A stretch of DNA of 64,000 nt, from positions 1,364,001 to 1,428,000 of the forward strand of contig NZ_AP014636.1 of assembly GCF_001547935.1 (NCBI RefSeq), in the 5' to 3' direction. The notes beneath the pieces are model-generated. The model worked only from the letters and a program-made list of their open reading frames with translations. It searched no databases and was not told the origin of the DNA. The stretch is from Vibrio tritonius. Its GTDB lineage: Bacteria; Pseudomonadota; Gammaproteobacteria; Enterobacterales; Vibrionaceae. The position numbers were made by a program, and so were the translations under genes. Positions 41,198 to 56,658 of this stretch are shown piece after piece (within the stretch, counting starts at the first letter, position 1; each line of letters begins with the position of its first letter).

Positions 41198-41261
41198 GAG
41201 CTTGACTTGTGCTCGTTGATGAAGCTTTGAATTCTGCATCTTGAGGTCATTTGGGCATATA
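41198..41261. repeat. Right-end copy of TATACCC-type dispersed repeat
   Basis: Starts GAGCTTGACTTGTGCTCGTT and ends TTGAGGTCATTTGGGCATATA. Matches the right end of the 29664 copy with a few changes. Confidence 0.75.
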
Positions 41262-41353
41262 GATTGATCAACTCCCTATTTAGGGGTAAAAAACGTAACA
41301 TATATCTGTCGTCTCACGTACAATTGGCTCAAACAACGACCCTATAAACCATT

Positions 41354-41617
41354 ATGAACAACGTCATTTTCGCATCCTTACTCTGTGGACTACTGAGCGC
41401 ATGCTGCTCAGCAGGCGGACAGTCTCAAAATACCGTCACGGTAGCAACGCCCGTACCAAGATCACATACACAAGAACGTGTGGCAGCGGGTGATCCTTCT
41501 GTTGAGGTCCAAAGTGCAACAGGAACACTCTCATCAGGCCCTTACATTCCGGTAAAAAGTGTCTTTTCACACACCAATAATGACGAATTTGAAAATGCTC
41601 AAGACGCAACACAATAA
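41354..41617 (+). CDS. Small predicted lipoprotein
   Basis: 87 residues with a lipoprotein signal: a hydrophobic N-terminus and the lipobox LLSAC, then a Ser/Thr/Val-rich mature part without hydrophobic helices. I do not recognise the family. It lies 64 nt before glk on the same strand and may be co-transcribed. No function can be inferred. Confidence 0.7.
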   Translation: MNNVIFASLLCGLLSACCSAGGQSQNTVTVATPVPRSHTQERVAAGDPSVEVQSATGTLSSGPYIPVKSVFSHTNNDEFENAQDATQ

Positions 41618-41681
41618 CCTGTTGTCTTTTGGTAAACGTTGATCAAAAGTGGATTGAGTATTCATAGGTAACGGAGGATTT

Positions 41682-42650
41682 ATGTCACAGCAGTATGCAT
41701 TGGTGGGCGATATCGGTGGCACGAACGCTCGCTTGGCACTTTGTGCTTTAGATAACGGTCAAATCAGCCAACCCCTCACCTATTCAGGAGCGGATTACCC
41801 CAGCCTTGAGGTGGTGATAAAAAAATATCTATCTGAAGTGAATCAACAGGTGACCACAGCATGTCTTGCTATCGCTTGTCCGATCAACAGCGATTGGGTA
41901 TCGATGACCAATCACAGCTGGGCATTTTCCATTCAGGAACTCAAACAACAGTTGCAACTCGAACGCCTCGAAGTGATCAACGACTTTACCGCTGTTTCAA
42001 TGGCAATCCCCGCTCTTTCTGCGCAAGATTACCTGCAAATTGGTGGAGGACAACCTCAATCAGGAAAACCTATCGCCATCTTTGGTGCGGGAACAGGGTT
42101 AGGTGTCGCACATCTTATTCAAGTCAACAAGCAATGGCTTAGCCTCCCAGGTGAAGGTGGGCATGTCGATTTTGCACCTTGCAGCGATGAAGAAGACTCA
42201 CTCCTAAAATGGTTACGTCAGCAATTTGGCCGAGTGTCGGCAGAACGTTGCTTATCTGGGCAAGGGTTGGTGCATATCTATAATCACCATGTTATTTCCC
42301 AAGGACGCGAACCAGAAGCATTAACACCGAAAGAGATCACCGAACTTGCATTAGCAGAGCAAAACCCTGATTGTGTTGCGACGCTATCACTATTTTGTGT
42401 GTTACTAGGACGTTTTGCCGGTAACTTAGCCTTGAATATGGGCACCTTTGGTGGGGTCTATCTTGGTGGAGGTATTGCACCACGCTTTAAAGAGTTCTTG
42501 CTCGCATCGGATTTTCGCAAAGCATTCGAAGAGAAAGGTCGCTTTAATGAATACTTAAATGCCATTCCGGTTTTTCTGCTCACTCACAAAGAACCCGGAT
42601 TACTTGGTGCTGGAGCCTATTTACGCCAAGCACTAGGCAAAGCGCTTTAA
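41682..42650 (+). CDS. glk: Glucokinase
   Basis: 322 residues of the bacterial Glk family, phosphorylating free cytoplasmic glucose with ATP. The phosphate-binding motif [12 protein letters not shown] (10-21), [22 protein letters not shown], and [11 protein letters not shown] with its catalytic-region residues are present. Length equals E. coli Glk. The ribosome site GGAGG lies seven nt before the ATG. Confidence 0.94.
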
Positions 42651-42675
42651 TATTAAATGTCCATGAATGAGTTAA

Positions 42676-42701
42676 GGGAAGGTTATTACCTTCCCCTTTT
42701 T
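42676..42701 (+). terminator. Terminator after glk
   Basis: GGGAAGGT, loop TATT, ACCTTCCC, then CTTTTT. Confidence 0.88.
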
Positions 42702-42712
42702 CATCCGCACAT

Positions 42713-43099
42713 TTAGGCAAGATATAACATAAACGCAGCGGCAAATGCTGGAATACCCGCAACGAAAAGCGTTAATCCGGTGCCCGCATCCATATAAGCC
42801 GATGCATTACCAATTTTAGTCAACTGACGGAACTCTCCATTGGCACGCACTGGTGCCGTATATCGGTCAAACCAACTAATCGTACTTTGCGCTTTCGCGC
42901 TTTTATCCGATACAAAGCCCGCTAACGCCCAAATAACTACCGTGATAAAGAAGAGAAAATCGCATAAATTCTGAGGCTTAAAAAGATCAACAACCTGCGA
43001 TAAGCCATAAACCACCACAGCAGCAACCACGTTGATCCCCAATACCATCACTAACCATTTTTTCACGTATACATCCTTATCTTGTATTCTTCTCATCAT
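42713..43099 (-). CDS. Small two-to-three-helix membrane protein, unknown family
   Basis: About 128 residues from the ATG at 43099, which has GAGG six nt upstream. A GTG at 43066 also has AAGGA upstream and would give a 117-residue protein beginning VKKWLVMVLG. Hydrophobic segments lie at the N-terminus, in the middle (DFLFFITVVIWALAGFV) and at the C-terminal end. I do not recognise the family. It converges with glk; the glk terminator lies between the two stop codons. Confidence 0.65.
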   Translation of the reverse strand: MMRRIQDKDVYVKKWLVMVLGINVVAAVVVYGLSQVVDLFKPQNLCDFLFFITVVIWALAGFVSDKSAKAQSTISWFDRYTAPVRANGEFRQLTKIGNASAYMDAGTGLTLFVAGIPAFAAAFMLYLA

Positions 43100-43207
43100 T
43101 TTAATCCTCAGCAGCAATCAAATAGGGTGAATTATTTCTGAGCTACAAAAGATTGCCGCATTAAACACCAATATGAAACAAAATGCACCAATAAAACTCG
43201 ATAATAC

Positions 43208-43350
43208 AAGGACAGACACTTTAAGGGGGGCAAAGATAAAGTGTCTGTCCCCTCAAGCAGCTTAGAGGGACAGGCATCTTAAACACTAGAGCCGTCAGCT
43301 TAGAAGGACAGGCACCCTAAGTATTAGTTTTAGGTTAGAAGGACAGGCAC
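43208..43350. repeat. Cluster of five REP-type motifs (a-e)
   Basis: Cores: GGACAGACAC 43210, GTGTCTGTCC 43241 (inverted), GGACAGGCAT 43268, GGACAGGCAC 43306 and 43341. The first two form perfect 13-bp arms (43210-43222 and 43238-43250), a BIME-like hairpin. The last three are direct copies about 36 nt apart, each preceded by TTAGAAG or TTAGAG. They lie upstream of ppa. Confidence 0.8.
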
Positions 43351-43544
43351 TCTAAGTCGTCTTTTTCATATCGTTACTCTTTCAGGCATTGCGCTTTGGT
43401 TTGGGTCGCGTAAACTCAGTCGCGGATTTCTCTAAAATTGAGTGTCTCCATATTGAGCAGTTGCTTCATCGGTGGATGATTATCGTTACCGCTGAGTAAC
43501 AAAAACTGTTAAAATGCGCGCGAAATATTGATAAGGAAGCTGAA

Positions 43545-44075
43545 ATGGCAGATTTTAATAAAATTTTAACTCCAGGCGATTACGAAAATGGCCTAGTGAA
43601 TGTAGTTGTAGAAATCCCAACTGGTAGCAACCACAAAATTGAATGGAACCGTGAGCTTGCTGTGTTCGAACTTGATCGTGTTGAACCACAGATTTTTGCA
43701 AAACCAACTAACTACGGTTTTATTCCGCAAACTCTTGATGAAGATGGCGACGAACTTGACGCACTAATCATCACTAGCGAACCACTAACAACTGGTATCT
43801 TCCTACAAGCTAAAATCATCGGCGTAATGAAATTCGTTGATGACGGCGAAGTTGATGACAAAGTTGTTGTCGTTCCTGCTGACGACCGTAGCAACGGTAA
43901 TGCGATCAACTCTCTAGAAGATCTTCCAGCGCAACTTATCAAGCAAATCGAATTCCACTTCAATCACTACAAAGATTTGAAGAAAGCTGGCACAACTAAA
44001 GTTGAAAGCTGGGGCGACATCGCTGAAGCAAAAGAAGTTATCGCTGAATCAATCCAACGTTGGAACGACCAATAA
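43545..44075 (+). CDS. ppa: Inorganic pyrophosphatase
   Basis: 176 residues, the soluble family I pyrophosphatase that hydrolyses pyrophosphate. The metal-binding motif DEDGDELDALI is intact, and NYGFIPQTL is present. Codon use is visibly that of a highly expressed gene. The ribosome site AAGGAAG lies six nt before the ATG. Confidence 0.95.
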   Translation: MADFNKILTPGDYENGLVNVVVEIPTGSNHKIEWNRELAVFELDRVEPQIFAKPTNYGFIPQTLDEDGDELDALIITSEPLTTGIFLQAKIIGVMKFVDDGEVDDKVVVVPADDRSNGNAINSLEDLPAQLIKQIEFHFNHYKDLKKAGTTKVESWGDIAEAKEVIAESIQRWNDQ

Positions 44076-44141
44076 TCGATTGATGATGTTTAGTAACCTC
44101 ACTCATTATTTAGAGTGAGCCGTTACATAAACGCACAATTA

Positions 44142-44176
44142 AAAGCCGCTAGCACGAAAGTGTAGCGGCTTTTTTA
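44142..44176 (+). terminator. Terminator after ppa
   Basis: AAGCCGCTA and TAGCGGCTT arms with an inner CAC-GAAA-GTG hairpin (GNRA loop), then TTTTT. Confidence 0.9.
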
Positions 44177-44199
44177 TATCCATTTAAAGAGACAATCTT

Positions 44200-44213
44200 A
44201 GAAGGACAGGCAC
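44200..44213. repeat. REP-type motif (f)
   Basis: GGACAGGCAC core at 44204-44213, preceded by TTAGAA, downstream of ppa. Confidence 0.7.
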
Positions 44214-44238
44214 CACAAACTGCCCCAAAAAAGCTCTA

Positions 44239-45000
44239 CTATCCTGCCACTTCTAGCGGTAATCCTGCCTCTTCAAACAGCACTTGGTATCGAGCATTTG
44301 GCGAAGAATCGGTGATGCACAGAGAAAAATCCTTGAGATGCCCAACCTTAACCGCACCACGTTTACAGAATTTGGATGAATCAAGTAACAAAATGGCTCT
44401 ATCTGATGCTTTCATCATCGCCTTTTTTACCGCGACTTTTTCTGAGTCAAAATCCAGAACATAACCATTTGCATCGAGTCCAGAAGCACAAATTACGGCA
44501 CAATCGGCGCTGTACGATTGAATGTCTTGGCAGGTTTTCGCTCCTGTTAAAGAGCCATCAGCACCGCGAATGACGCCCCCAGTCACTACTACCGAATGGT
44601 CCATTTCAAGTTGAGACAACAACAAAGCCGCTGACAAATTATGCGTAATAATTTGCTTATGGGGGAGCGACTCCATGGCACAAGCCAGTTGCTCACAGGT
44701 CGTGCCCGTATCAAGAAATAAACTATCAATCAATCGAATATGCTCTACGGCAGCATGCGCGATAGCCACTTTGGCTTGCGCCATCACCGAGGACTTAAAA
44801 TTATGACCAAGGCGAACTTCTGGTTCAGCTTGTGTCACCCCGCCATGAAACCGCTGCAGAAGATTATCGCTACAGAGCTTTTTGATATCCCGGCGAATGG
44901 TCGGTTGAGAACAACCCAGCTCATGAGCGAGCAACTCGATGGAGGCGTAGCCTTGTTCACGTACGATTTCGAGCAATTTATTGTGTCTAACTTGGGACAA
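44239..45000 (-). CDS. DeoR-family transcriptional repressor
   Basis: 253 residues. The N-terminal helix-turn-helix (ASIELLAHELGCSQPTIRRD) is followed by the DeoR effector domain with SLFLDTGTTCEQLA and DCAVICASGLDANGYVLDF. DeoR effectors are usually sugar phosphates. The start is TTG at 44998-45000, supported by TTTGGAG eight nt upstream; an ATG further up is out of frame. The ribosome site borders the repeated 28-bp element at 45013-45040, so self-regulation is likely. Confidence 0.85.
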   Translation of the reverse strand: MSQVRHNKLLEIVREQGYASIELLAHELGCSQPTIRRDIKKLCSDNLLQRFHGGVTQAEPEVRLGHNFKSSVMAQAKVAIAHAAVEHIRLIDSLFLDTGTTCEQLACAMESLPHKQIITHNLSAALLLSQLEMDHSVVVTGGVIRGADGSLTGAKTCQDIQSYSADCAVICASGLDANGYVLDFDSEKVAVKKAMMKASDRAILLLDSSKFCKRGAVKVGHLKDFSLCITDSSPNARYQVLFEEAGLPLEVAG

Positions 45001-45012
45001 GCGATGATCTCC

Positions 45013-45040
45013 AAAGTGTCATATTGAGCATTTATGATCA
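45013..45040. promoter_or_regulatory. DeoR operator candidate, copy 1
   Basis: A 28-bp element starting AAAGTGTCA and ending ATGATCA in the divergent deoR/LOG-like intergenic region. It is repeated at 45763-45790 with about 20 of 28 positions conserved. Confidence 0.6.
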
Positions 45041-45098
45041 AGTTTATCAGAGCCAACCAACAAGTTGCTCCTTTCAACTCAAGAGTCATAAAAAATTC

Positions 45099-45725
45099 AT
45101 GAACACATTGTTTTCTATAGATAATTCGAATCACACACTGCTTTATAGAGCACATCCAACCCTCATTCGAGTCATCGATATGCAGTCGAGCTTTGCCCAA
45201 AAAGTCGTTCAATGTCGCGATGAGTTTGCTCTACTGGCGCTTCTTTTTGAGCATAACAAAGAGATTCAAATGCCACCTGTCGGCGTTATTGGTCCCAAAG
45301 AAGCCACCGATGAGCAATATCAAGTGGCTAAGCAACTCGGTCAGCGCTTAGCTCAGTTAGGGCTGACCATAGTATGCGGCGGGCGTAATGGAGTGATGGA
45401 AGCTGTATGTTTAGGTGTGCACCTTGCGGGAGGCCAATCGATCGGTATTTTGCCTGGAGACCATTGGACTGAAGCCAACCAATACGTCACCTTTCCTATT
45501 GTTACTAATATGGGGCCGACGCGTAACTCATTGATAGCTCAAACCGCTTTTGCTTTGATTGCCGTGGGTGGTGGTTACGGCACGTTAACAGAAATGGCAT
45601 TTGGCTTACATTACAATAAGCCCGTCTTTGCTTTAGCTAATGCACCTGAAGTCGATGGCGTAAAATACTACGAAGATATTGAACCCATCCTACATCGTGT
45701 CATTGACGCTTTGTTGCAACGTTAA
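45099..45725 (+). CDS. LOG-like Rossmann protein (TIGR00725 type)
   Basis: About 208 residues from the ATG at 45099; a later ATG at 45180 is possible. The core begins at VGVIGPKEATDEQ. Then come TIVCGGRNGVMEAV, NMGPTRNSLIAQTAFA and VGGGYGTLTEMAF, which match the nucleotide-binding LOG/TIGR00725 fold. Classical LOG enzymes release a base and ribose 5-phosphate from nucleoside monophosphates, but here the usual PGG-x-GT-x-E motif reads GGGYGTLTE. The N-terminal 55 residues precede the usual family start and are unexplained. The gene heads the ABC operon and is divergent from deoR. Confidence 0.75.
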   Translation: MNTLFSIDNSNHTLLYRAHPTLIRVIDMQSSFAQKVVQCRDEFALLALLFEHNKEIQMPPVGVIGPKEATDEQYQVAKQLGQRLAQLGLTIVCGGRNGVMEAVCLGVHLAGGQSIGILPGDHWTEANQYVTFPIVTNMGPTRNSLIAQTAFALIAVGGGYGTLTEMAFGLHYNKPVFALANAPEVDGVKYYEDIEPILHRVIDALLQR

Positions 45726-45762
45726 GTCAAACCGATAAATAAAGCTTCAACAACACGCAATC

Positions 45763-45790
45763 AAAGTGTCACATCCAAACTTCATGATCA
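45763..45790. promoter_or_regulatory. DeoR operator candidate, copy 2
   Basis: A 28-bp element AAAGTGTCA ... ATGATCA before the first permease gene, matching 45013-45040 in the same orientation. Confidence 0.6.
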
Positions 45791-45791
45791 C

Positions 45792-45812
45792 AAACAATCA
45801 AATTGATTGTTT
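45792..45812. promoter_or_regulatory. Perfect 21-bp palindrome before permease start
   Basis: AAACAATCAA and TTGATTGTTT are inverted around one central A. The palindrome ends six nt before the ATG at 45819 and overlaps the usual ribosome-site position, so it may control translation or be a repressor site. Confidence 0.55.
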
Positions 45813-45818
45813 AGAGTC

Positions 45819-46598
45819 ATGAAAAAGATCACTTATCTCTACCTTGTTTATCTCACTCTTCCTATCGCCTTGCTGGCGGTAGGATCCTTTGGCCAAAGTT
45901 GGGTTAATACTCTGCTGCCATCAGGTTTTACCTTAGAGTGGTATCAGCAAATATGGAACTCAACGTCCTATCATAGAGCACTTATCACGAGCATCGAAGT
46001 GTGTCTCGCTGCAGGGCTATTAAACCTTGTGACGGTGACGCCTTGCGTTTATCTGTTACAAGTTTACGGTTCCTCTCGTTTGAAACAGTGGTTAAGGCTG
46101 AGCGCTTTACTGCCTATCGCTGTCCCGGAATTGGTGATTGGCTTTGGCTTTATTTTGGCCTTTACCAGCGATGAACTGCCGTGGCTTGGAGCCACCTGGT
46201 TACTTATCATTGGCCATTGGGTTTTAACCTTTCCCTACTTCTTTTTTAGCCTTCTTGCGGATAGTGAGAAATCGCCGCTTGAGCAGCTAGACAAAGTCGC
46301 CCAATCGTTTGGAGCTAATGCTCTGAAACGATTTATCACCGTATTTCTTCCATTAGCAAGCCAATCGCTGATGACAGGCTTAATTACCGTAGCAGCCATT
46401 TCTCTTGGGGAATTTCAGCTTAGTAACCTGATTGCCGGCTTTATGAACCGCACCTACCCCACTTTATTGCTGCAAGCATTTTATGGCGCGACAGGTCTCG
46501 CCTGCGCTGCCACTATGATTCTACTGCTCCTTGCGATGGTAATGTCATTTCTCTCCAGCGCACAGCAGTGGTCTAAAAACAAGAGTTGTCCATCATGA
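45819..46598 (+). CDS. ABC transporter permease 1
   Basis: About 259 residues from ATG 45819, six membrane helices. The EAA-type loop is in EQLDKVAQSFGANALKRF, where the ATPase docks. It is of the CysTW/PotC class found in iron, polyamine and phosphonate importers. Its stop codon overlaps the ATPase start (ATGA), so the two are coupled. The same operon holds one ATPase, one binding protein and a second permease. Confidence 0.85.
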   Translation: MKKITYLYLVYLTLPIALLAVGSFGQSWVNTLLPSGFTLEWYQQIWNSTSYHRALITSIEVCLAAGLLNLVTVTPCVYLLQVYGSSRLKQWLRLSALLPIAVPELVIGFGFILAFTSDELPWLGATWLLIIGHWVLTFPYFFFSLLADSEKSPLEQLDKVAQSFGANALKRFITVFLPLASQSLMTGLITVAAISLGEFQLSNLIAGFMNRTYPTLLLQAFYGATGLACAATMILLLLAMVMSFLSSAQQWSKNKSCPS

Positions 46599-47635
46599 TT
46601 GAATTTAAATCGGTAAACTTCACTTATCCCAATAGCACTGTTGGTGTCCATGACATTTCTCTGCAGGTCAACACTGGAGAACTGATCGCCATTTTAGGCA
46701 AAAGTGGTTGTGGCAAAACAACATTACTCAAGCTTCTTGCTGGATTTGAGCAGCCTAACAGCGGCGAGATTTGGATTAACAATGTCAATCAAGCCAACCT
46801 ACCTTGTGCCAAGCGTCGCCTTGGTATTGTGTTTCAAGATTATGCGCTGTTTCCCCACTATTCCGTGCTTAAAAATGTCATCTATCCATTAAAAATCAAT
46901 AAGATTGACAATGCTGAGCATAAAGCTCGTCGCATGATTGAACTGGTTGGCCTGTGCGGAATGGAGCATCGTTTGCCACATCAGCTTTCGGGCGGTCAAA
47001 GACAACGCGTTGCCCTCGCACGAGCCTTAGTTTTTGAGCCTGCGGCATTACTGCTTGATGAACCGCTCTCGGCACTCGATGCTTCGTTACGCCATGAGAT
47101 GCGCCAAGAGATTGTTAAGATTCAAAAAGAGCTGAATATGACCACCTTTTTGATCACTCACGATCAAGAAGAAGCCATGACCATGGCCAATCAAGTGGCG
47201 GTAATGCACAACGGAAAAATACAGCAATGTGCATCACCACTGGAGTTATACCACCAGCCCAACAGCCTAGAAGTGGCTCGCTTTGTCGGCAAGGCCAATG
47301 TTTTGCACGGTAAAGTCACAGCTGAGCATCAAGTGCTAACCGAGCTTGGTCCACTGACTGTGAATCGATCTTTAGTCACAGGGGAAAAAGTGGATCTGAT
47401 TGTGCGTCCAGAACACATCCAATTAGAAACCAATCACCACGCGAGCAATCAATTCACGATTACTCGCCTGCATCAACAACAGTTTTTGGGCCACACCATG
47501 GAGTACACGCTGCAAGTTGGCGATGTCACTCTGCAAGCGTGCGCCCCGCACCTTAATCACCCATTAACACACTTATCTATTCCATCTGAATCTATTCATG
47601 TCCTGTACACGGAGACGTCACATGAAACTGCATAA
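46595..47635 (+). CDS. ABC transporter ATP-binding protein
   Basis: About 346 residues from ATG 46595; the TTG at 46586 is not needed. Walker A GKSGCGKTT, the signature LSGGQRQRVALARAL, Walker B LLLDEPLSALD and the switch THDQEEAMT are intact. The C-terminal TOBE-like domain, with VDLIVRPEHIQLET, fits the PotA/AfuC/PhnT class. Start and stop overlap its neighbours. Confidence 0.92.
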   Translation: MIEFKSVNFTYPNSTVGVHDISLQVNTGELIAILGKSGCGKTTLLKLLAGFEQPNSGEIWINNVNQANLPCAKRRLGIVFQDYALFPHYSVLKNVIYPLKINKIDNAEHKARRMIELVGLCGMEHRLPHQLSGGQRQRVALARALVFEPAALLLDEPLSALDASLRHEMRQEIVKIQKELNMTTFLITHDQEEAMTMANQVAVMHNGKIQQCASPLELYHQPNSLEVARFVGKANVLHGKVTAEHQVLTELGPLTVNRSLVTGEKVDLIVRPEHIQLETNHHASNQFTITRLHQQQFLGHTMEYTLQVGDVTLQACAPHLNHPLTHLSIPSESIHVLYTETSHETA

Positions 47636-48701
47636 ACTTTCTTGCGCTGGTGCGGCACTGGCGCTTATTGCCTCTTCTTCTGTTTTCGCTCAAGCGCTGC
47701 AAGGGCCTGAGTTATACAAAGGAGAGCAACAACAATACGACAAAGCCTTAGATGAAGGCATGGTGGTCTCTTTTGACACTGGCCCAACTTGGGCAAACTG
47801 GGGAACCATGTTTAGCGCGTTTAAAAAGCGCTATCCAGGCGTAGAAATTGTTTATAACGACCTTGGTTCTGCCGCGACTGTCGTTGCATTAGATAAGTCA
47901 AAACACCGCCCTCAAGCCGATACAGCGTATTACTTTGGCGCCTCAGCCATTGATGCGAAGCAAAAGAATTTGCTGACGGGGTATAAGCCCGACAACTTTG
48001 CGCAAATTCCTGACGTGTTCAAAGACAAAGACGGAAAGTGGTTTACGATTCATACTCTTAACGTCGCTTTTTTGGTGAATAAAAAGCTCGTTAAAGAGGT
48101 ACCTACCTCTTGGGCTGATCTGCAAAAAGCGCAATACAAAAACAGCATTGTCTATCAAGACCCACGCACCACTGGTCAAGGACAAGTTGTCGTACTCGCG
48201 GCTAACCTTGCCGAAAAAGGCACCATGACCAACATCAAACCAGGTGCCAATTACTTTGGTGAACTGCAGAAAAAAGGCAACGTGCTGCGCGTGGTTGGCA
48301 CAACACCTTATGCTCAATTTGTTAAAGGTGAGATTCCTATTTGGATCGGTTACGAAAATGACGGTCTCAAAGCCGAGCTCAAAGACGGTATGGGCGACAA
48401 CGTTGCCGTGGTGATTCCTAAAGAAGCATCATTGGCAGCGCCTTATGCTATTTCAATGGTCAAAAATGGCCCCAACCCAGAAGCAGCAAAACTGTGGTTG
48501 AACTTCATTATGTCTCAACAAGGGCAATCGATCTTTGCCGAAGGCTATGTTCGTCCAGTTCTCACCAACATGGCCTTGCCTGATTCGGTGAAAGATAAGT
48601 TAGTCAAAGCACCACAAATTCAGCCACTGGATCTCAATGCGGCGGCAGCGATTAAATCCGACTTGGATAAAGCGTGGTCACAACAGGTACTAGGCCATTA
48701 A
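47622..48701 (+). CDS. ABC transporter periplasmic substrate-binding protein
   Basis: About 359 residues from ATG 47622, which overlaps the ATPase gene by 14 nt and has GGAGA upstream. The signal peptide is AGAALALIASSSVFA. The mature part resembles family 1 (iron/AfuA/polyamine-like) binding proteins, with GPTWANWGTMFSAFKKRYPG and YQDPRTTGQGQ. Which ligand it binds is unknown; pairing with DeoR and a LOG-like enzyme suggests a sugar phosphate or nucleotide-derived compound. Confidence 0.85.
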   Translation: MKLHKLSCAGAALALIASSSVFAQALQGPELYKGEQQQYDKALDEGMVVSFDTGPTWANWGTMFSAFKKRYPGVEIVYNDLGSAATVVALDKSKHRPQADTAYYFGASAIDAKQKNLLTGYKPDNFAQIPDVFKDKDGKWFTIHTLNVAFLVNKKLVKEVPTSWADLQKAQYKNSIVYQDPRTTGQGQVVVLAANLAEKGTMTNIKPGANYFGELQKKGNVLRVVGTTPYAQFVKGEIPIWIGYENDGLKAELKDGMGDNVAVVIPKEASLAAPYAISMVKNGPNPEAAKLWLNFIMSQQGQSIFAEGYVRPVLTNMALPDSVKDKLVKAPQIQPLDLNAAAAIKSDLDKAWSQQVLGH

Positions 48702-48732
48702 TGACCAACCATTTAGTAGAAGGAATCAAAGC

Positions 48733-49554
48733 ATGAAATTAGCAAAATGGGCAGTATGGTTTCCGATGCTTCCCGGACTCTTAGGCTACGGATTGTTTTT
48801 CCTGTTTCCTGTCATATTGGTATTTTCAGAGGCGCTCAGTGCGCCTCTTGAAACCTTTAACCGGATGATATCAGACAGCTACCTACTTTCGAGCATCGGT
48901 GGAAGCTTGGTACTTGCTGGCAGTGCGTCATTGATGTCACTCTTGGTTGCTCTGTTTATCGCCTATTTTCTTAGTCAAACTTCACCACGGATGAGGCAAT
49001 GGCTCAGTATCGCAATTGCACTTCCCCTCGTGTTCAGTGGTTTGATTGTTGCTTACGGCTTCATTCTTACTTTCGGTCGCGCAGGATTTGTCACCCAACT
49101 ATTGGGACAGATTGGCATTCCCGAAGGACAATTTGGTAATGTGATCTTTACGCCAGTGGGCCTTGCGATGGTATATTGCTACTACTTGATCCCACGAGCC
49201 GTGTTTATTTTGCTCCCAGTGATACTTAACTTTGACTGGCAACAGATGAAGGTTTCCGAAAGCTTCGGGGCAAACCGCTGGCAGAGTTATCGTTACGTAT
49301 TCTTACCACAACTCTATCCAGCAATGATCACCTCACTCTGCGTAATGGTCTCCGTCGCGTTAGGCGCCTATGGTACAGCACTGGCGTTATCGGGAACTCA
49401 GCTCAATATTTTACCTCTGGCTATCTACAGCAAAATCTCCGATGGCGGCACCGATTTCCCAGTTGTTGGTATGCTATCCCTGTTATTGGTCGGCCTGTGT
49501 GTTTTGTTTACATTACTTGCCGATAAACTCAAGCAACGCCTAGAAGCCATGTAA
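48733..49554 (+). CDS. ABC transporter permease 2
   Basis: 273 residues, six membrane helices, with the EAA-type loop KVSESFGANRWQSYRY. AAGGA lies before the ATG. It closes the importer operon in the order permease, ATPase, binding protein, permease. A REP hairpin with a T-run follows five nt after the stop. Confidence 0.87.
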   Translation: MKLAKWAVWFPMLPGLLGYGLFFLFPVILVFSEALSAPLETFNRMISDSYLLSSIGGSLVLAGSASLMSLLVALFIAYFLSQTSPRMRQWLSIAIALPLVFSGLIVAYGFILTFGRAGFVTQLLGQIGIPEGQFGNVIFTPVGLAMVYCYYLIPRAVFILLPVILNFDWQQMKVSESFGANRWQSYRYVFLPQLYPAMITSLCVMVSVALGAYGTALALSGTQLNILPLAIYSKISDGGTDFPVVGMLSLLLVGLCVLFTLLADKLKQRLEAM

Positions 49555-49558
49555 TAAA

Positions 49559-49610
49559 ATGCCTGTCCTTCTCTTGCAGGGACAGGCACTTTTTTAGAAG
49601 GACAGGCACC
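49559..49610. repeat. REP-type motifs (g, h, i), g/h forming a terminator-like hairpin
   Basis: ATGCCTGTCC 49559 and GGACAGGCAC 49580 form an inverted pair with GCCTGTCC/GGACAGGC arms, followed by TTTTTT. A third copy GGACAGGCAC is at 49600. The hairpin lies directly after the ABC operon and before the RAYT gene. Confidence 0.85.
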
Positions 49611-49708
49611 TCAATTTTTGAAGTCACTCGCATTCACCTCTATCACGGCTATTCCTTCGATAATTTCTTCGCCAATCTAGAGATTCTTATCTCAACAGGT
49701 CTTTCGTT

Positions 49709-50668
49709 ATGACTACAGCCAGAAGCAAGCAAATCGACCTAACTGTTACGCCTTATTATCACTGTGTATCGCGCTGTGTGAGGCGAACATATTTGTGTGG
49801 GTTTGACGAGAAAACTCAGCAATCTTATGAACATCGTCGTCTCTGGCTAGAACAAAAAATTCATCGTTTGGCACAAATGTACTGCATTGATATCTGTGCC
49901 TATGCAGTCATGAGTAATCACTACCATCTGGTAGTACATGTAAATAAACAAAAGGCATTAGCGCTATCGGAGCAAGAAGTAATGGAAAGATGGTCGATGG
50001 AACACCAACTCGACCCGCTACTCGCTCGTTATCAACAAGGCAGGATGACAGATAAAACTAGCGTGCAGGTTTGTCAGGGAATCATCGAAAAGTGGCGAGA
50101 AAGGCTTTACTCACTCAGTTGGATGATGCGAGAGCTCAATATGTCGATCGCGATGATGGCCAACAAAGAAGATGATTGCACAGGACACTTTTGGGAAGGT
50201 CGTTATAAATCCCAAGCATTGTTAGACAAAAATGCGCTCTTAGCCGCCATGACGTATGTTGATCTCAATCCCGTTCGCGCAAAAGCGGCGGCAACACCTG
50301 AAGACTCTGAACATACCTCGATAAAACTGCGTATCGAAGCGCAGAAAAAGGCCCAAACGACACCTGATTCACTACTCCCTTTTATAGGAAATGAGAGAGA
50401 ATCGCCCCCTATTGGCATCCCTTTTCATTTGAATGATTATCTGCAATGGGTGGATTGGATCGGCAGGCGAGTACGCAGCGATAAATTGGGTCATATCGAT
50501 GCAGACTTACCTAATATTTTGCAACGATTAGACGATAGCCACCCTCAGTTTCCGGATATCTATAATCAATTAGAGCAACGTGGCTGCTTATGGGTTGGAA
50601 GCCAAGATAAATTACATCACGCTAAAATGCAGCTAAACCGGCAGCGCATTCAAGGGATTGCCGTCTAA
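49709..50668 (+). CDS. REP-associated tyrosine transposase (RAYT, Y1/HUH family)
   Basis: A 319-residue Y1-type HUH nuclease. The HUH motif is HYH (71-73) in MSNHYHLVVHV, and the catalytic Tyr is most likely Tyr182 in MTYVDLNPVRAKA. CTGHFWEGRYKSQALL is also a family hallmark. RAYTs are single-copy domesticated relatives of IS200/IS605 transposases that nick REP hairpins. The gene lies inside a 10-kb stretch that holds every copy of the GGACAGGCAC motif seen in the window, which supports their being its cognate REPs. It has no IS-like ends. Confidence 0.92.
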   Translation: MTTARSKQIDLTVTPYYHCVSRCVRRTYLCGFDEKTQQSYEHRRLWLEQKIHRLAQMYCIDICAYAVMSNHYHLVVHVNKQKALALSEQEVMERWSMEHQLDPLLARYQQGRMTDKTSVQVCQGIIEKWRERLYSLSWMMRELNMSIAMMANKEDDCTGHFWEGRYKSQALLDKNALLAAMTYVDLNPVRAKAAATPEDSEHTSIKLRIEAQKKAQTTPDSLLPFIGNERESPPIGIPFHLNDYLQWVDWIGRRVRSDKLGHIDADLPNILQRLDDSHPQFPDIYNQLEQRGCLWVGSQDKLHHAKMQLNRQRIQGIAV

Positions 50669-50691
50669 CCACATGCTTTGACCTAAGAAAC

Positions 50692-51651
50692 TCACAAAAC
50701 CAAATTCTGCGGGCTTCCCTTGGCGTATTGCACCACATTTTCAAAGGCTTTGCCGAAATAAAGCTCATAGCTGCTCTGCTCTACATAACCTAAGTGCGGT
50801 GATGCAAGAACATTTTCTAGTGTCAGCAACGGCTCATTAGCAGTGGTCGCTGGCTCATTAGCATAAACATCAATAGCAGCCTGTTTTGAGGGATGTTTTA
50901 ACAGCGTTTGGTATAAAGCCCCATCTTCTACAAGCTCTGCTCGGCTGGTATTCACAAATAGCGAATCGGCCTTCATCAATTCAAGATCAGCACTCGTTAC
51001 ACATGCTTTGGTGACTTCGTTTAAACGAAGATGTAAAGAAACAATATCTGCCTGAGTAAAAAACGCTTGTTTTGATTCAGCCGCATCAAAACCGTCTTGA
51101 ACTGCCTTTTCTCTTGATGATGCACTGCCCCAAACCAAGACATTCATACCAAAGGCTTGAGCAAATTTCGCGATGCGCTGCCCGATTTTCCCATATCCCC
51201 AAATACCCAAAATTCGGCCATTAAGCGTGCGTCCCAGCCCTAGCGATCCTGAACTTTGCCAGTTACCTTGCTGTAATTGATTCACGTACGCAGGAATATG
51301 GCGCGACGCAGCCATAATCAGCGCCCAACAAAGCTCTGAGGGAGCCACGGGAGAGCCAACTCCTTCTGCGACATCAACACCATATTGAGCACATAGTTTA
51401 GGATCAATATGTTGGCTCACCTTCCCTGTTTGGCTAATCAATTTTAAACAAGGGAGACGTTCTAACAAAGCCGACGTAATCCACGTTCTCTCACGGATGA
51501 GGACCAAAACTTCGACGCTTTGTAAGCGTTCAATAAGCTCATCTTCGCTGTAGGTTTGATTCAATACCTGAACGTCATGGTCCGCTAAGAGCGAAAAACA
51601 ATCAAGGCGACGCACGGCATCTTGATAATCATCCAATATGGCAATTTTCAT
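50692..51651 (-). CDS. D-2-hydroxyacid dehydrogenase family protein
   Basis: About 319 residues from ATG 51651 (AGGAG ten nt upstream). The NAD-binding GYGKIGQ is present, along with the catalytic Arg in NTSRAELV, Glu in DVYANEP and His in SPHLGYVE. Relatives act on lactate, glycerate, phosphoglycerate or phosphonate-type substrates, and the substrate is not clear here. A REP motif lies 30 nt upstream, between this gene and the RDD gene. Confidence 0.88.
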   Translation of the reverse strand: MKIAILDDYQDAVRRLDCFSLLADHDVQVLNQTYSEDELIERLQSVEVLVLIRERTWITSALLERLPCLKLISQTGKVSQHIDPKLCAQYGVDVAEGVGSPVAPSELCWALIMAASRHIPAYVNQLQQGNWQSSGSLGLGRTLNGRILGIWGYGKIGQRIAKFAQAFGMNVLVWGSASSREKAVQDGFDAAESKQAFFTQADIVSLHLRLNEVTKACVTSADLELMKADSLFVNTSRAELVEDGALYQTLLKHPSKQAAIDVYANEPATTANEPLLTLENVLASPHLGYVEQSSYELYFGKAFENVVQYAKGSPQNLVL

Positions 51652-51681
51652 AGAAATCAAACTCCTAGCAAAAGACTTAAC

Positions 51682-51726
51682 GTGCCTGTCCTTCTAACTA
51701 ATCTACGCATTTAAAAGTGCCTGTCC
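51682..51726. repeat. REP-type motifs (j, k)
   Basis: GTGCCTGTCC at 51682-51691 and 51717-51726. Copy k lies inside the 3' end of the RDD gene and encodes its last residues and stop. Confidence 0.8.
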
Positions 51727-52154
51727 TTGTAAAAAGGTTTCACCGCCTTGACCACAACCGTGCCGGCGATAAGATCATGCCAGCCTTGTTTTCGGCTACT
51801 GAAAGCTATCCAGAGAAAGCCAAGACACAATGGAAAAGCGCTAATGTAATAACCAATATAACGAATAACTGAGCGACCAATACCAATCGGCTCACCTGTC
51901 GTGGCGTTCACAATCTTCAACTTCAAGATCATTTTGCCTGGAGTTGCTGAGCGATACACCCAGAAAATCATGGTGGCGATAAATGGGAAAATCCAACTAA
52001 TACCAATACTTGAACTTGCTTGCATCTGCATGCCATTTGCCCAATTGAAATAGCTATAGGCAGAATCGGCAAACGGAAGAGCCACCAGCAACATCAACAC
52101 AGTATCAATAATTGATGCGCCTAAACGAATCCAAAAACCTGCGTAAACCAGCAT
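51711..52154 (-). CDS. RDD-family membrane protein, C-terminus formed by a REP
   Basis: About 147 residues from ATG 52154 (GGAAG upstream); an upstream ATG at 52232 is possible. It starts YAGFWIRLGASIIDTVLML, the RDD signature, has about three membrane helices and the motif RSATPGKMILKLKIVN, and is a probable transporter-like protein. The last codons, reading KDRHF and stop, coincide exactly with the REP core GGACAGGCAC plus flanks. The ORF end therefore was probably created by the REP insertion. Confidence 0.82.
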   Translation of the reverse strand: MLVYAGFWIRLGASIIDTVLMLLVALPFADSAYSYFNWANGMQMQASSSIGISWIFPFIATMIFWVYRSATPGKMILKLKIVNATTGEPIGIGRSVIRYIGYYISAFPLCLGFLWIAFSSRKQGWHDLIAGTVVVKAVKPFYKDRHF

Positions 52155-52266
52155 TTTGTCTTCCACGTAATATCCTTCTATTTTGTTACGTTGATACTGA
52201 GCATTCTGTTGGCTAGCGTTTTCACTTGTCATCAAAAGGAAACCGAACTTACTGTACCAATTTAGA

Positions 52267-52302
52267 GTGCCTGTCCTGCTAATATTTTTAAGATGCCTGT
52301 CC
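52267..52302. repeat. REP-type motifs (l, m)
   Basis: GTGCCTGTCC 52267 and ATGCCTGTCC 52293, between the RDD gene and a GNAT gene. Confidence 0.75.
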
Positions 52303-52322
52303 TTATATTAAATATTTACTGA

Positions 52323-52856
52323 CTATCTTTCTTTAGCCAAACCATAAATCGCATGGTCAACAATGCGACCATTGAGATTTTCAGCACGGGTAATGATACC
52401 TTCTAACGTAAACCCTAACCGTTCACACAAACTGCGGCTGGCCTTGTTCCCTTCTGCGGCCGCAATCTCCACTTTTTCCATCTGATACTCTTCAAAAGCC
52501 ACTTCAATTAACTTACGGACGACTCGAGTCATGATGCCACGGCCTTGATAGTCTTCACGTAACCAATAGCCGATTTCGACTTTCTTTAAATTATGATCGA
52601 TGGAGTTAAAAGAGACTGTGCCAACAATCTGCCCTGAGAAAATCACCGAACAGGTTAACGATTTGCCTGCCGCATAGTTTTGCAGTGACGTTTGGATAAA
52701 GCTGAGGAAAAAGCCTTCGCCATCAGCGTGTTCTGGCCATGCAAGCCATTGACTAAGATAAGTTCGCTGCTGGGCGACGATGTCATAATAGATTTTAGCA
52801 AATGAGGGCTGAATCAGAGCCAAACGTAATTCTTGGTCGATGTCGAGTGTAAACAT
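52323..52856 (-). CDS. RimL-type GNAT acetyltransferase
   Basis: 177 residues. The acetyl-CoA loop is YQGRGIMTRV, preceded by KKVEIGYWLRED, and RLGFTLEGIITRAENLNGR is typical of the RimJ/RimL group, which acetylates protein N-termini. AGGAG-like GGAGAA precedes the ATG. It is one of four GNAT genes in this region. Confidence 0.87.
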   Translation of the reverse strand: MFTLDIDQELRLALIQPSFAKIYYDIVAQQRTYLSQWLAWPEHADGEGFFLSFIQTSLQNYAAGKSLTCSVIFSGQIVGTVSFNSIDHNLKKVEIGYWLREDYQGRGIMTRVVRKLIEVAFEEYQMEKVEIAAAEGNKASRSLCERLGFTLEGIITRAENLNGRIVDHAIYGLAKER

Positions 52857-52896
52857 AGGTTCTCCTTTACCACTATGTAGACGATGATGAGTTAAG

Positions 52897-52950
52897 GTGC
52901 CTGTCCTTCTAAGAAAGCAAGAAACAGCGGCGGAATTAAAGTGCCTGTCC
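52897..52950. repeat. REP-type motifs (n, o)
   Basis: GTGCCTGTCC 52897 and 52941. Copy o is next to the stop codon of the following GNAT gene, and the stop TAG is part of the conserved TTAG flank. Confidence 0.8.
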
Positions 52951-52952
52951 CG

Positions 52953-53408
52953 CTAAGGAAGAACATATTCCAGTAAGGGCAACTGGCGGTTTTGTGGTTT
53001 ACTAAACTCTTCACCTATGCGCTTGGCACCTAAATGAAGATAAAAACCGGCAGCATCGGGGTCAGATACAATCGTAAAACGGGCTATGCCTAGTGCTTGG
53101 CATTGACAAAGAATTTCTTTGAACACTTCGCGGCCAAGCCCTTTCCCGGCATAGTCTGGCAACAGCCATAGGTGGTCGAGATAGTTTGTCTCACCTTGCA
53201 ACAAAGCAAAGAAACCAGCAATGTTATCCTCCACCACAACCAATTTGACCGTATTCGCCGTAATGTACGATGGCTCGATGCGTAAATCTTTACGCCAAAT
53301 ATCCAGCTGTTGCCGAGAATAGCCCCAATACCCTTTTGATTCGATGGCGATATCACTGAGCAATTCACCTTGCTCTGGTAGCGCATCTTTAAAAGTAATC
53401 TTTTCCAT
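52953..53408 (-). CDS. GNAT acetyltransferase
   Basis: 151 residues. The acetyl-CoA loop is DYAGKGLGREVF and the C-terminal helix region is DAAGFYLHLGAKRIGEE. The substrate is unknown. The stop codon comes from the REP flank at 52950. It is 31 nt downstream of the VOC gene, so they may be co-transcribed. Confidence 0.85.
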   Translation of the reverse strand: MEKITFKDALPEQGELLSDIAIESKGYWGYSRQQLDIWRKDLRIEPSYITANTVKLVVVEDNIAGFFALLQGETNYLDHLWLLPDYAGKGLGREVFKEILCQCQALGIARFTIVSDPDAAGFYLHLGAKRIGEEFSKPQNRQLPLLEYVLP

Positions 53409-53439
53409 TACAACCTCTTGGGGTTATTTGAATAAGGTT

Positions 53440-53862
53440 TTAAGATTTGGTTTTTTCACCCAAATACTGGCTAAAGCGCAGCAGATAACCGTCGGGGTCT
53501 TGCACGAGAAATTCGCGCTGACCAGATAGCATATCGCCAACGTCATACCAGCTCTCTTTCATCTCGCGATACAGCGCAATTTGTGCCGATACCAAACGGC
53601 CATGCACAGGCGCAATATCGGCTAACTCTATTTGGAAATTGATCCCACGCCCTAACGGAAACTCAAGCGCCCCAGTGTTCCAACCCGATTCGTGAATTTG
53701 TTCCAGCATCAGTTGGACATTTCCCATATCGAGATAAGCAAAATCTGGATTTGAACGTTGGTTACGAATCGAGAAGCCCAAAATCTCACAATAGAAATGC
53801 AGTGACTTGGAAAAATCGGTCACTGATAACTCAGGAACCATTGGGTTCCAATACTCTTCCAT
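53440..53862 (-). CDS. VOC-fold protein (glyoxalase/bleomycin-resistance type)
   Basis: 140 residues with the paired beta-alpha-beta-beta-beta units of the VOC superfamily. The N-terminal half has VPELSVTDFSKSLHFYCEIL, and the C-terminal half has REFLVQDPDGYLLRFSQYLG. Members act as dioxygenases, isomerases or drug-sequestering proteins. This one is close in length to the bleomycin-binding type, but binding cannot be proven. Confidence 0.82.
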   Translation of the reverse strand: MEEYWNPMVPELSVTDFSKSLHFYCEILGFSIRNQRSNPDFAYLDMGNVQLMLEQIHESGWNTGALEFPLGRGINFQIELADIAPVHGRLVSAQIALYREMKESWYDVGDMLSGQREFLVQDPDGYLLRFSQYLGEKTKS

Positions 53863-53945
53863 AAGTTCCTAACCTATTATTTAAAAACAATAAAAGAGCA
53901 GAATACGTTGTCAGAGAGAAAATAAACAGTGCGAATCGTTATCTA

Positions 53946-54395
53946 TCAATGTGAAAGCGTTTTACCTAGGCAAATTGAGAGTGTGCTAACGCGATATTTA
54001 CCAAAAGGCGCTATTGGTCTAAATCCTTTTGCTAAGTAGAAATCCACTGCGGTTTGATTGACTAAACGAGTGGAGAGAATGACTTGATGAAAACCAAGCT
54101 CATTCGCGATAGCAAGCAATTGCTTTAATACAAAGCTGCCACCACCTGATATTTTTGAATAAATGCGTTTTAGTTCTCCAACACTTGAAGAGTGAGAACG
54201 TAAAGCACCGCAGGCAACAGGCTTATTGCCAAGATAGACGACCAATTGAACCGCTTCTTGACTGGTTCTAGCGGCGTGCGTAAATGAACTTGCACCAGAA
54301 TCACCGGTTAACTTAGTCAGTACCTGATTCAACTCGCCTGCTAATTGACAAAAATCAGCATCATCTTCCATGACTTGTCGACAATGAAAATCCAT
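53946..54395 (-). CDS. GNAT acetyltransferase
   Basis: 149 residues, with GELKRIYSKISGGGSFVLKQ as the acetyl-CoA loop and VDFYLAKGFRPIAPFGKY near the end. The loop lacks the usual Arg-x-x-Gly-x-Gly spacing in part (GGG), but the fold pattern is clear. Substrate unknown. Confidence 0.82.
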   Translation of the reverse strand: MDFHCRQVMEDDADFCQLAGELNQVLTKLTGDSGASSFTHAARTSQEAVQLVVYLGNKPVACGALRSHSSSVGELKRIYSKISGGGSFVLKQLLAIANELGFHQVILSTRLVNQTAVDFYLAKGFRPIAPFGKYRVSTLSICLGKTLSH

Positions 54396-54536
54396 TTAGC
54401 CTCCGATGCCGCTAGGTAAAATCAATTGCATGAAGCGTCACTTATTATCATTTGACTCAGCTAAGTGATTCATCGGTGCCCAAGCTAATCTCATAGAGCA
54501 CGCGCTCTCCTCCTGACGTTTAATAGACAAGATGTA

Positions 54537-55109
54537 TCACTTGGTCACATCAATCATACGGACAAACGTAAACGCATTGTTTTCAAAGCGATATTCAAAA
54601 ATCGCGCAGTTGGGAATGCCATTTTTAAGCACTTCTTCGTGGTTTTCATGCCAATGCATCAAAAACTGTTTGCATGAACCGGCATGAGATACTGCTAAAA
54701 CCGTATTGTGCTCCGGCTTTTGCATGATCTCAGTACATGTTGCTACCACACGTTCACGCACTTTGGCTTTCGCTTCTCCGCCAAATTGCACGTAGTAGGT
54801 TTCTCGCATATCGATATTTGGGTGCAAATCTTCGCTTTCTGATTCGTAGGTACCGAAATTGATCTCTTTAAGTCCTTTTAAGCGCTGATAAGGCATTTGT
54901 TGATGCGTCACGATTTCTGCGGTATCACAGGCACGTTCAGAAGAAGAGCTGTACAGGTGATCCAATTTGATATCGTCGAAAAAACGCGACGCCATCTTTG
55001 CTTGTTCAATACCGGTTTCAGTTAGAGGGGAATCGCACCAGCCTTGGATTTTACGTCGTACGTTAAAAAGGGTTTGCCCGTGGCGCATTAAGTAAAACGT
55101 CGTTGCCAT
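54537..55109 (-). CDS. Histidine phosphatase family protein
   Basis: About 190 residues from ATG 55109. The RHG motif (LMRHGQTLFN) near the N-terminus carries the catalytic His, and the second His is in AVSHAGSCKQF. Relatives are phosphoglycerate mutase-like phosphatases and alpha-ribazole phosphatase. The exact substrate is unknown. Confidence 0.88.
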   Translation of the reverse strand: MATTFYLMRHGQTLFNVRRKIQGWCDSPLTETGIEQAKMASRFFDDIKLDHLYSSSSERACDTAEIVTHQQMPYQRLKGLKEINFGTYESESEDLHPNIDMRETYYVQFGGEAKAKVRERVVATCTEIMQKPEHNTVLAVSHAGSCKQFLMHWHENHEEVLKNGIPNCAIFEYRFENNAFTFVRMIDVTK

Positions 55110-55184
55110 CAATCTTATTCCTTAAACTTTAAATTCTTGTATGTGTGTTTCTTTTAGTCACTGCGTTAACTTTTAATCATGGCG

Positions 55185-56195: not shown

Positions 56196-56235
56196 CTCAT
56201 CTCTCTTGTCACGTTATTGCTGCTTTAAAAGCGAA

Positions 56236-56658
56236 TTATTTTAAGTTCTTTTCCATTGCTAAATGAGGGATGCCTGCTTCGATAAATTCGTCACCAAAAG
56301 AGACAAAGCCCAATTTACGATAGAAGTCGACCGCATGGATCTGAGCCCCTAGATAGACACGAGGATAACCTTGTAACTCAGCTTCTTTGATTAATGAACG
56401 CACCACCTGAGCGCCAACACCTTGACCACGGTAAGCCGCTAAAACAGCAATACGACCAATATGCCCGTCGGCGAGTAAACGACCAGTTGCTACGGGTTCA
56501 CCGTCAATGGTAATGAGGGCGTGTAGCGCATTGGCATCGCATCCATCAAATTCAAGCGTTGGATCGATGTCTTGCTCTTGAATAAAAACTTCATCACGTA
56601 TGGCACGAATTTGTGGCGCATACTCTTCGTTATAACTCACATTGGTTATGAACAGCAT
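56236..56658 (-). CDS. GNAT acetyltransferase
   Basis: 140 residues with the acetyl-CoA loop AAYRGQGVGAQVVRSL and the end VDFYRKLGFVSFGDEFIE. The N-terminus (IRAIRDEVFIQEQDIDP) resembles the YjcF/ElaA type. Function unknown. It is the fourth GNAT gene of the region and lies 40 nt upstream of the Gfo/Idh/MocA gene. Confidence 0.85.
   Translation of the reverse strand: MLFITNVSYNEEYAPQIRAIRDEVFIQEQDIDPTLEFDGCDANALHALITIDGEPVATGRLLADGHIGRIAVLAAYRGQGVGAQVVRSLIKEAELQGYPRVYLGAQIHAVDFYRKLGFVSFGDEFIEAGIPHLAMEKNLK

What the first reader, a model, noticed from the sequence alone, without database searches (positions are those of the whole stretch)
43208..52950. RAYT gene inside a 10-kb cloud of its probable REP motifs
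I counted 15 copies of the core GGACAGGCAC (or one-base variants) between 43.2 and 53.0 kb and none elsewhere in the window. The only HUH-type gene (49709-50668) lies among them. Several copies share the flank TTAGAAGG, and two pairs form BIME-like hairpins (43210/43238 and 49559/49580). RAYTs are known to be linked to REPs. The core here differs from the enterobacterial GTAG-headed REPs I know, so this may be a lineage-specific REP family.
Basis: partly seen in the sequence, partly recalled or inferred. Interest (0 to 1): 0.75.

Follow-up and report, generated by a model that had tools for sequence, protein, structure and literature searches.

The report
Transposase genes with private repeat clouds
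A family of transposase-like genes in Vibrio and other bacteria is bracketed by, and surrounded with, copies of its own 21-letter DNA site, branches of the family keeping their own version nearby, and some neighbouring genes come and go exactly at those sites.

Summary
The cluster is real: 15 copies (10 exact, 5 one-off) at 43.2-53.0 kb, none elsewhere in the window, 2.4 expected. They are not canonical REPs but sharply bounded 21-bp sites, TTR-N4-GACAnnCAC-NN-YAA, without GTAG foot or consistent stem covariation. The genome holds 18 RAYT paralogues. Over 65 RAYT loci the site lies upstream in sense (100 vs 8) and downstream inverted (63 vs 7). In 11 recent copies (86-95% identical) upstream homology starts at the site, and a related genome lacks all 11 at the syntenic places: the sites look like ends of a mobile element of about 1.3 kb. 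The middle dinucleotide follows the RAYT tree; 36 of 38 GGACAGGCAC copies lie within 25 kb of the four G-type RAYTs, none near the 14 others. Some gene indels have sites at both borders. The protein fits TnpAY1 subclass 2.3, for which a 2018 survey found no REP-like repeats; TIRtrons are the closest known arrangement. Cleavage of the site by the protein is inferred, not shown.

The parts
49709..50668 (+). RAYT / Y1 (HUH) transposase gene, 319 aa; HuH = H71-Y72-H73, catalytic Y183
49615..49708 (+). leader between the proximal site and the start codon; resembles the leaders of the other G-type paralogues (TTGAAnTCACTCG)
   Evidence: by eye
49594..49614 (+). 21-bp site, left end nearest the RAYT
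49574..49594 (+). 21-bp site
49554..49574 (-). site, one-off core, inverted to the next copy
43204..43224 (+). site, one-off core (GGACAGACAC)
43236..43256 (-). site, one-off core, inverted to 43204-43224; degenerate in G208
43262..43282 (+). site, one-off core; absent in G208
43300..43320 (+). 21-bp site
43335..43355 (+). 21-bp site
44198..44218 (+). 21-bp site, shared with G208
51677..51697 (-). 21-bp site, nearest inverted site downstream of the RAYT
51712..51732 (-). 21-bp site; the end of the RDD ORF lies inside it
52262..52282 (-). 21-bp site, one border of an indel: G208 has a 125-aa DUF4440 gene here
52288..52308 (-). site, one-off core, other border of the same indel
52892..52912 (-). 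21-bp site
52936..52956 (-). 21-bp site

Best explanation
The RAYT is an HUH-Y1 enzyme whose recognition site is the 21-bp unit TTR-N4-GACAnnCAC-NN-YAA. Two units in inverted orientation form the ends of an autonomous element of about 1.3 kb (shown by alignment of recent copies). The enzyme nicks single-stranded DNA at the unit and joins unit to unit (inferred from the enzyme family). That moves the element and scatters solo units, mostly within about 25 kb of the encoding gene (distribution shown, cause inferred). Joining of two units in direct orientation deletes or inserts whatever lies between them, including whole genes (borders shown, the enzyme's part inferred). The dinucleotide in the core (G-type or C-type) follows the RAYT lineage, so each lineage keeps its own cloud.
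Against: No cleavage or transposition was tested. No target-site duplication could be read; only one of the 11 empty sites (L037) was clean on both sides. Solo arrays also grow by ordinary tandem duplication (22-bp periods and 27-33-bp duplicates in G036/G008, by eye), and gene loss between repeats can be RecA recombination or slippage. G087, G102 and G021 have raised motif counts but no RAYT hit. Exact GGACAnnCAC is missing next to 10 of 12 plasmid relatives and in 8 of 14 genome-contig relatives. Most indels have no unit at either border: 45 of 64.
Confidence: 0.62

Rival explanations
1. The units are the ends of the RAYT element, but the clouds and the gene losses are passive: units multiplied by tandem duplication and remnants of old RAYT insertions, and genes between them were lost by homologous recombination or replication slippage.
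For: Tandem 22-bp arrays and 27-33-bp duplicates (by eye); segment B in G036 is bordered by long imperfect direct repeats that contain the units; 45 of 64 nearby indels have no unit at either border.
Against: Copies lie in separate intergenic places up to 25 kb away with conserved genes between them in both species. Copies and RAYTs are type-matched. The two units round the 0.42-kb gene share only an 11-bp run plus their edges.
Confidence: 0.25
2. A canonical REP/REPIN population with a RAYT.
For: RAYT fold, inverted pairs in the window, proximity. Nunvar 2010 (PMC2817692, two passages seen) reports REPs made near a rayt gene in Thauera.
Against: No GTAG/GTGG foot and no consistent stem covariation. 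Copies hug the gene and are not spread over the genome. The repeats are the ends of recently moved elements.
Confidence: 0.06
3. The unit is a regulatory or protein-binding site (autoregulation of the RAYT, or a directional host signal) and does not take part in DNA movement.
For: A copy lies about 110-160 bp upstream of many RAYT starts, with a conserved leader in the recent copies. Copies are polar about the RAYT: clusters at 0.5-15 kb are +19/-3 upstream and -22/+5 downstream, Fisher 2e-6.
Against: Polarity is confounded with gene direction (6:4 in discordant places) and absent beyond 15 kb. A regulatory role explains neither the inverted downstream copies nor the element ends nor the indel borders.
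Confidence: 0.07

Closest known systems
TIRtron / TIRYT (Di Nocera et al. 2013, PMC3733652)
   Same: RAYT-like HUH gene between inverted repeats at similar distances; GGGGACAG and GGGGACAC, the form of part of the units, fit their consensus GGGGWSAS; repeats can form families in dimers and clusters.
   Different: They describe long TIRs. Of their 26 examples 20 fall in subclass 2.1, all with helix-turn-helix tails (PMC6006769 section 20). Here: a sharply bounded 21-bp site, a protein of the subclass 2.3 type, type-specific clouds in one genome, recent mobility, and gene indels at the sites.
TnpAY1 subclass 2.3 (BMC Genomics 2018, PMC6006769)
   Same: 319 aa (their median 325); HuH-to-Y spacing 110 (their median 110); several divergent copies per genome; relatives on plasmids of Alteromonadales, one of the two orders where they find it most.
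   Different: The survey found no REP-like sequences for subclasses 2.1 and 2.3; here each of 18 paralogues has GGACAnnCAC copies in its 20-kb stretch and 35 of 65 loci have the inverted pair.
RAYT/REP systems (REPtrons, REPINs; E. coli TnpAREP, PDB 4er8)
   Same: Fold and catalytic motifs; repeats beside the gene; each transposase with its own repeat family (PMC6006769 section 12).
   Different: No GTAG foot or stable hairpin; copies are local; the gene itself has moved recently.
IS200/IS605 (IS608, ISDra2)
   Different: Here the ends are inverted copies of one linear site; end hairpins were not seen.

Membership tests
RAYT / TnpAREP-like Y1 protein | HuH and Y---NP motifs in an IS200-like core | tested here: met
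   H71, H73, Y183, N187 and P188 invariant in 45 sequences; Y1_Tnp over cut-off; 4er8 best match. NCBIfam REP_Tyr_transpos matches below its cut-off (42.5 of 80 bits).
Canonical REP | GTAG/GTGG foot on a stable hairpin | tested here: not met
   Unit logo without GTAG; no stem covaries consistently.
Canonical REP | Copies dispersed over the genome | tested here: not met
   36 of 38 G-type copies within 25 kb of matching RAYTs.
TIRtron / TIRYT | Inverted repeats flank the gene | tested here: met
   100:8 and 63:7 orientation; both sides in 35 of 65 loci.
TIRtron / TIRYT | GGGGWSAS in the repeats | tested here: inconclusive
   GGACA[GC] fits, but only 36% and 47% of G-type sites have G at -2 and -1.
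TIRtron / TIRYT | Helix-turn-helix tail (20 of 26 cases, per PMC6006769) | tested here: inconclusive
   Pfam finds only Y1_Tnp in the protein; the C-terminus was not searched alone.
TnpAY1 subclass 2.3 | HuH-Y spacing about 110 and length about 325 | tested here: met
   Spacing 110, 319 aa.
TnpAY1 subclass 2.3 | Subclass-specific distal C-terminal domain and MCL cluster | not testable with these tools
   Their profiles and clusters are not held.
Autonomous insertion sequence | Defined ends, recent copies at different places, empty sites in relatives | tested here: met
   11 of 11 absent in G208.
Autonomous insertion sequence | Target-site signature | tested here: inconclusive
   Flanks too diverged; one locus clean on both sides.
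Integron cassette array | Tyrosine integrase IntI and attC sites | not tested
   Considered because genes lie between direct units; no integrase or attC search was made.

The most novel reading that the evidence does not exclude
The unit arrays round each RAYT are working borders of a gene-cassette system run by an HUH enzyme: genes between units are cut out and put in again and again at the same sites, without an integron integrase. In six related genomes with one RAYT each, a 2.3-2.4-kb gene segment next to the RAYT is present in three and absent in three, with units at both borders in all 9 comparisons, and the pattern needs at least two changes on the RAYT tree as drawn (one of the forks is weakly supported).
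Probability: 0.3. Interest if true: 0.85.

Novelty: new variant of a known kind. Interest (0 to 1): 0.62.

Why it matters
It supplies a repeat partner for a RAYT subclass for which a survey reported none, and shows RAYT-like genes that have moved recently. One genome with 18 enzymes and two cleanly separated site types is a ready-made set for learning which residues read which bases. If the cassette reading holds, it is an HUH-based way in which bacteria swap whole genes at fixed sites.

Tried and rejected
Hairpin model of the unit (TTR.RRG/CNYYAA): rejected as a stable stem. In the main set of 74 units -4/+12 covaries (p 0.003) and -6/+14 weakly (p 0.04); the other sets give other isolated pairs (-2/+11 p 0.011 in 125 units; -2/+10 p 0.006 in 83; -4/+12 p 0.03 and -2/+10 p 0.05 in 19), never a whole stem. 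Orientation set by gene direction alone: cannot be separated from RAYT-centred polarity (28 of 30 clusters, plus one tie, where both agree; 6:4 where they conflict). PF01797 as a RAYT census: abandoned, it finds 3 places in the genome, 2 of them among the 18 full-length genes that the protein search finds; so its silence in G087, G102 and G021 says little by itself. Rfam on six RAYT loci: nothing at E up to 1. Viral contigs: no relative. PDB by sequence: no HUH hit. The 20 'control' stretches hold 13 sites, 10 of them in L062, which turned out to be a RAYT-less cloud; they were kept in the count. Genome-contig relatives L072-L077 (6 of 14, distant or partial) have no exact copy and were left out of the 65-locus table. 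By the exact pattern 7 of 65 loci have no rightly placed site; by a looser one 2 of them, L078 and L089. In the polarity table copies with poor edges were dropped by a score filter and 7 of 38 stretches as orthologues. Search for the motif strings in papers: 500 papers hold one, 40 listed, none recognisable by title as about this; the other 460 were not seen. I make no claim that the motif is not in print.
Full report
WHAT WAS CLAIMED AND CHECKED. Fifteen copies of GGACAGGCAC (at most one mismatch) lie at 43210-52950 and none elsewhere in the window; shuffles give 2.4 on average and never 15. The window is G000:C2:1364001-1428000 of a two-contig, 5.2-Mb genome; the first named matches of its RAYT are Vibrio proteins. 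The RAYT (49709-50668, 319 aa) is the only one found in the window. Genome-wide there are 38 exact copies and 1 of the reversed control; with one mismatch 186 and 98.

NOT ONE RAYT BUT EIGHTEEN. A protein search of the own genome finds 18 full-length paralogues, the other 17 being 51-63% identical to the window's. I fetched 20 kb round each and 20 control stretches. A k-mer count showed related motifs at several other loci: GGACACTCAC and GGACACACAC. GGACAnnCAC occurs 104 times in the 18 RAYT stretches (at least twice in each) and 13 times in the 20 controls, 10 of these in one control stretch explained below.

THE UNIT. Thirty-eight G-type copies give a logo that starts at -6 and stops at +14 with next to no information outside: T T R N R R GGACAGRCAC N Y YAA; T at -5 is invariant, A at +13 and +14 about 90%. 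Sixty-nine copies of the other types (CA, CT, CG, GT) give a looser version round GGACACWCAC. Covariation for a bulged stem was sought in 74, 125, 83 and 19 distinct units; isolated pairs stand out (in the first set -4/+12, 0.64 paired against 0.50, p 0.003), but no stem as a whole, so I treat the unit as linear.

THE UNITS BRACKET THE GENE. In 65 RAYT loci (18 own, 8 of G208, 29 of the family, 8 of 14 genome-contig relatives, 2 more) the upstream 450 bp hold 100 sense and 8 antisense copies, the downstream 450 bp 63 antisense and 7 sense; 58 loci have at least one rightly placed copy, 35 have both. The set includes Myxococcota and Planctomycetota relatives. Of the 14 genome-contig relatives 8 lack exact copies: L067, L071 and the distant or partial L072-L077; L067 and L071 have copies by a pattern that also allows CAT for CAC.

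A TEST ON RECORDS NOT USED BEFORE. Twelve plasmid records with relatives (Pseudoalteromonas, Catenovulum, Shewanella and others) hold the exact pattern at 2 of 12 loci, so the exact motif does not generalise. In the other 10, the most frequent 8-mer of the orientation-corrected flanks is GACACCCA, in 9 of 10 loci against 0 of 10 in the opposite orientation. It was picked after looking, and is followed by C or T, but it fits GACAnnCA; in most of the copies printed the TTR and YAA edges can be recognised at the same spacing (by eye).

TYPE MATCHING. The first variable base (G or C) agrees between left and right flank in 31 of 35 loci (permutation p 1e-4). On a 64-protein tree the label needs 6 changes against 18.9 for shuffled labels. 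In the own genome 36 of 38 exact G-type copies lie within 25 kb of one of four G-type RAYTs (1.5 expected) and 0 of 38 near the 14 C-type ones (5.2 expected by area). Of the first 100 of 132 C-type copies, 59 lie within 25 kb of a C-type RAYT (13.7 expected over the whole genome, 11.2 over the part listed) and 0 near a G-type one; the list covers contig 1 and contig 2 up to 1.13 Mb, so two of the four G-type RAYTs. One C-type core lies inside a G-type stretch (L025, in a gene).

RECENT MOVEMENT. Eleven of the 18 paralogues are 86-95% identical to each other. Aligned upstream, their homology begins at the unit; downstream it fades after the stop, and an inverted unit lies about 160-220 bp after the stop in 10 of 11 and 489 bp after it in the other. 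In G208, which shares the window locus at 92%, the places of all 11 were found by at least one flank (15 of 18 typed segments matched); both flanks align within a few kb in 9, and none holds a RAYT: the eight RAYTs of G208 lie elsewhere. At L037 the related sequence departs 12 bp and 2 bp from the outer units, at L031 (left) 6 bp (by eye). No target-site duplication is claimed.

GHOST CLOUD. Control stretch L062 (C2:950-970 kb) has ten sites and no RAYT. With its neighbour it is syntenic (81-95%, mostly 94-95%) with a G208 cloud that still has its RAYT (C2:915639); the two genomes part about 45 bp after the unit they share on the RAYT side. So a cloud without RAYT can mean a lost RAYT. That may explain G087, G102 and G021, whose motif counts are raised against their controls without a RAYT hit, but was not tested there. 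In 37 genomes of the genus, motif-to-control ratio and RAYT count correlate (Spearman 0.50, p 0.0017).

LOCALITY AND POLARITY ELSEWHERE. Two genomes of genus g9 with one RAYT each hold 31 of 43 and 22 of 33 GGACAGRCAC copies within about 15 kb of it. Copies upstream are + in 15 of 16 and 12 of 13, downstream - in 13 of 15 and 8 of 9. Over 31 of 38 RAYT stretches (7 orthologous ones dropped), clusters 0.5-15 kb away are +19/-3 upstream and -22/+5 downstream (Fisher 2.3e-6); beyond 15 kb there is no polarity. Gene direction follows the same pattern, and where the two disagree the count is 6 to 4, so the cause is open. Preferred production of REPs near a rayt gene was already noted for Thauera (PMC2817692, two passages seen).

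GENES COME AND GO AT UNITS. At window 52267/52293 G208 carries a 125-aa DUF4440 gene exactly between the two units; the window has 5 bp there. Unit arrays also differ in length: upstream of the RAYT at C1:2701875 G000 has 74 bp and at least one unit more than G208. Over 20 syntenic pairs, 64 indels of 60 bp or more: a unit within 40 bp of at least one border in 19 (2.3 expected), of both in 7 (0.04 expected), of neither in 45. Of the 7, three are RAYT copies, one is two array-length changes merged by the chaining, three are cargo: 0.42, 2.4 and 3.1 kb. The 2.4-kb segment of G036 holds a 707-aa protein with PRiA4_ORF3 and DUF domains; the 3.1-kb one a Na+/H+-antiporter-like and a Cys/Met-metabolism gene. 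In six g9 genomes, 18 of 40 pairwise indels of 250 bp or more (not independent) have units within 60 bp of both borders (0.23 expected). The 2.3-2.4-kb segment is present in G036, G016 and G041 and absent in G008, G026 and G031, with units at both borders in all 9 comparisons, which needs at least two changes on the RAYT tree as drawn. Other indels there, among them one of about 11 kb, have no unit at the borders.

MECHANISM. Shown: unit boundaries, inverted bracketing, type matching, locality, recent copies, indels at units. Inferred from the enzyme family: single-strand nicking at the unit by Y183 and transfer to another unit, in cis more than in trans. Open: whether solo units are made by the enzyme or by tandem duplication, and whether cargo loss needs the enzyme.

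Noticed in passing
window 41259-58298: The cloud region is about 90-96% identical to G208 while the neighbouring 26-41 kb are mostly 75-84%: a patch of raised identity, possibly exchanged between the species. No genome-wide baseline was made.
   Followed up: partly
window 51711-51732: The RDD ORF ends inside a unit, so its last residues are encoded by the repeat.
   Followed up: no
L026 (G000:C1:2695209-2699697) and the syntenic G208 stretch: Units repeat inside an ORF, in frame as DVGTGTS-like heptads (by eye); unit number differs between the species.
   Followed up: partly
window 53946-54395: A 149-aa ORF (acetyltransferase-like by eye) present in the window is missing in G208 without a unit at its borders.
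   Followed up: partly
L139 (G208:C2:407961-408917): The G208 orthologue of the window RAYT carries a stop inside the matched frame.
   Followed up: no
G000:C2:615854-621296: Eight C-type copies in 5.4 kb, among them three inverted pairs spaced 41 bp, with no RAYT within 50 kb.
   Followed up: no
G103: Fourteen IS200-like Y1_Tnp genes, eleven with the same or nearly the same score: an ordinary IS expansion in a genome without a hit to this RAYT.
   Followed up: no
L008-L018 upstream: About 145 bp between unit and start codon are conserved among the 11 recent copies; no Rfam match in six RAYT loci searched, three of them from this group.
   Followed up: partly
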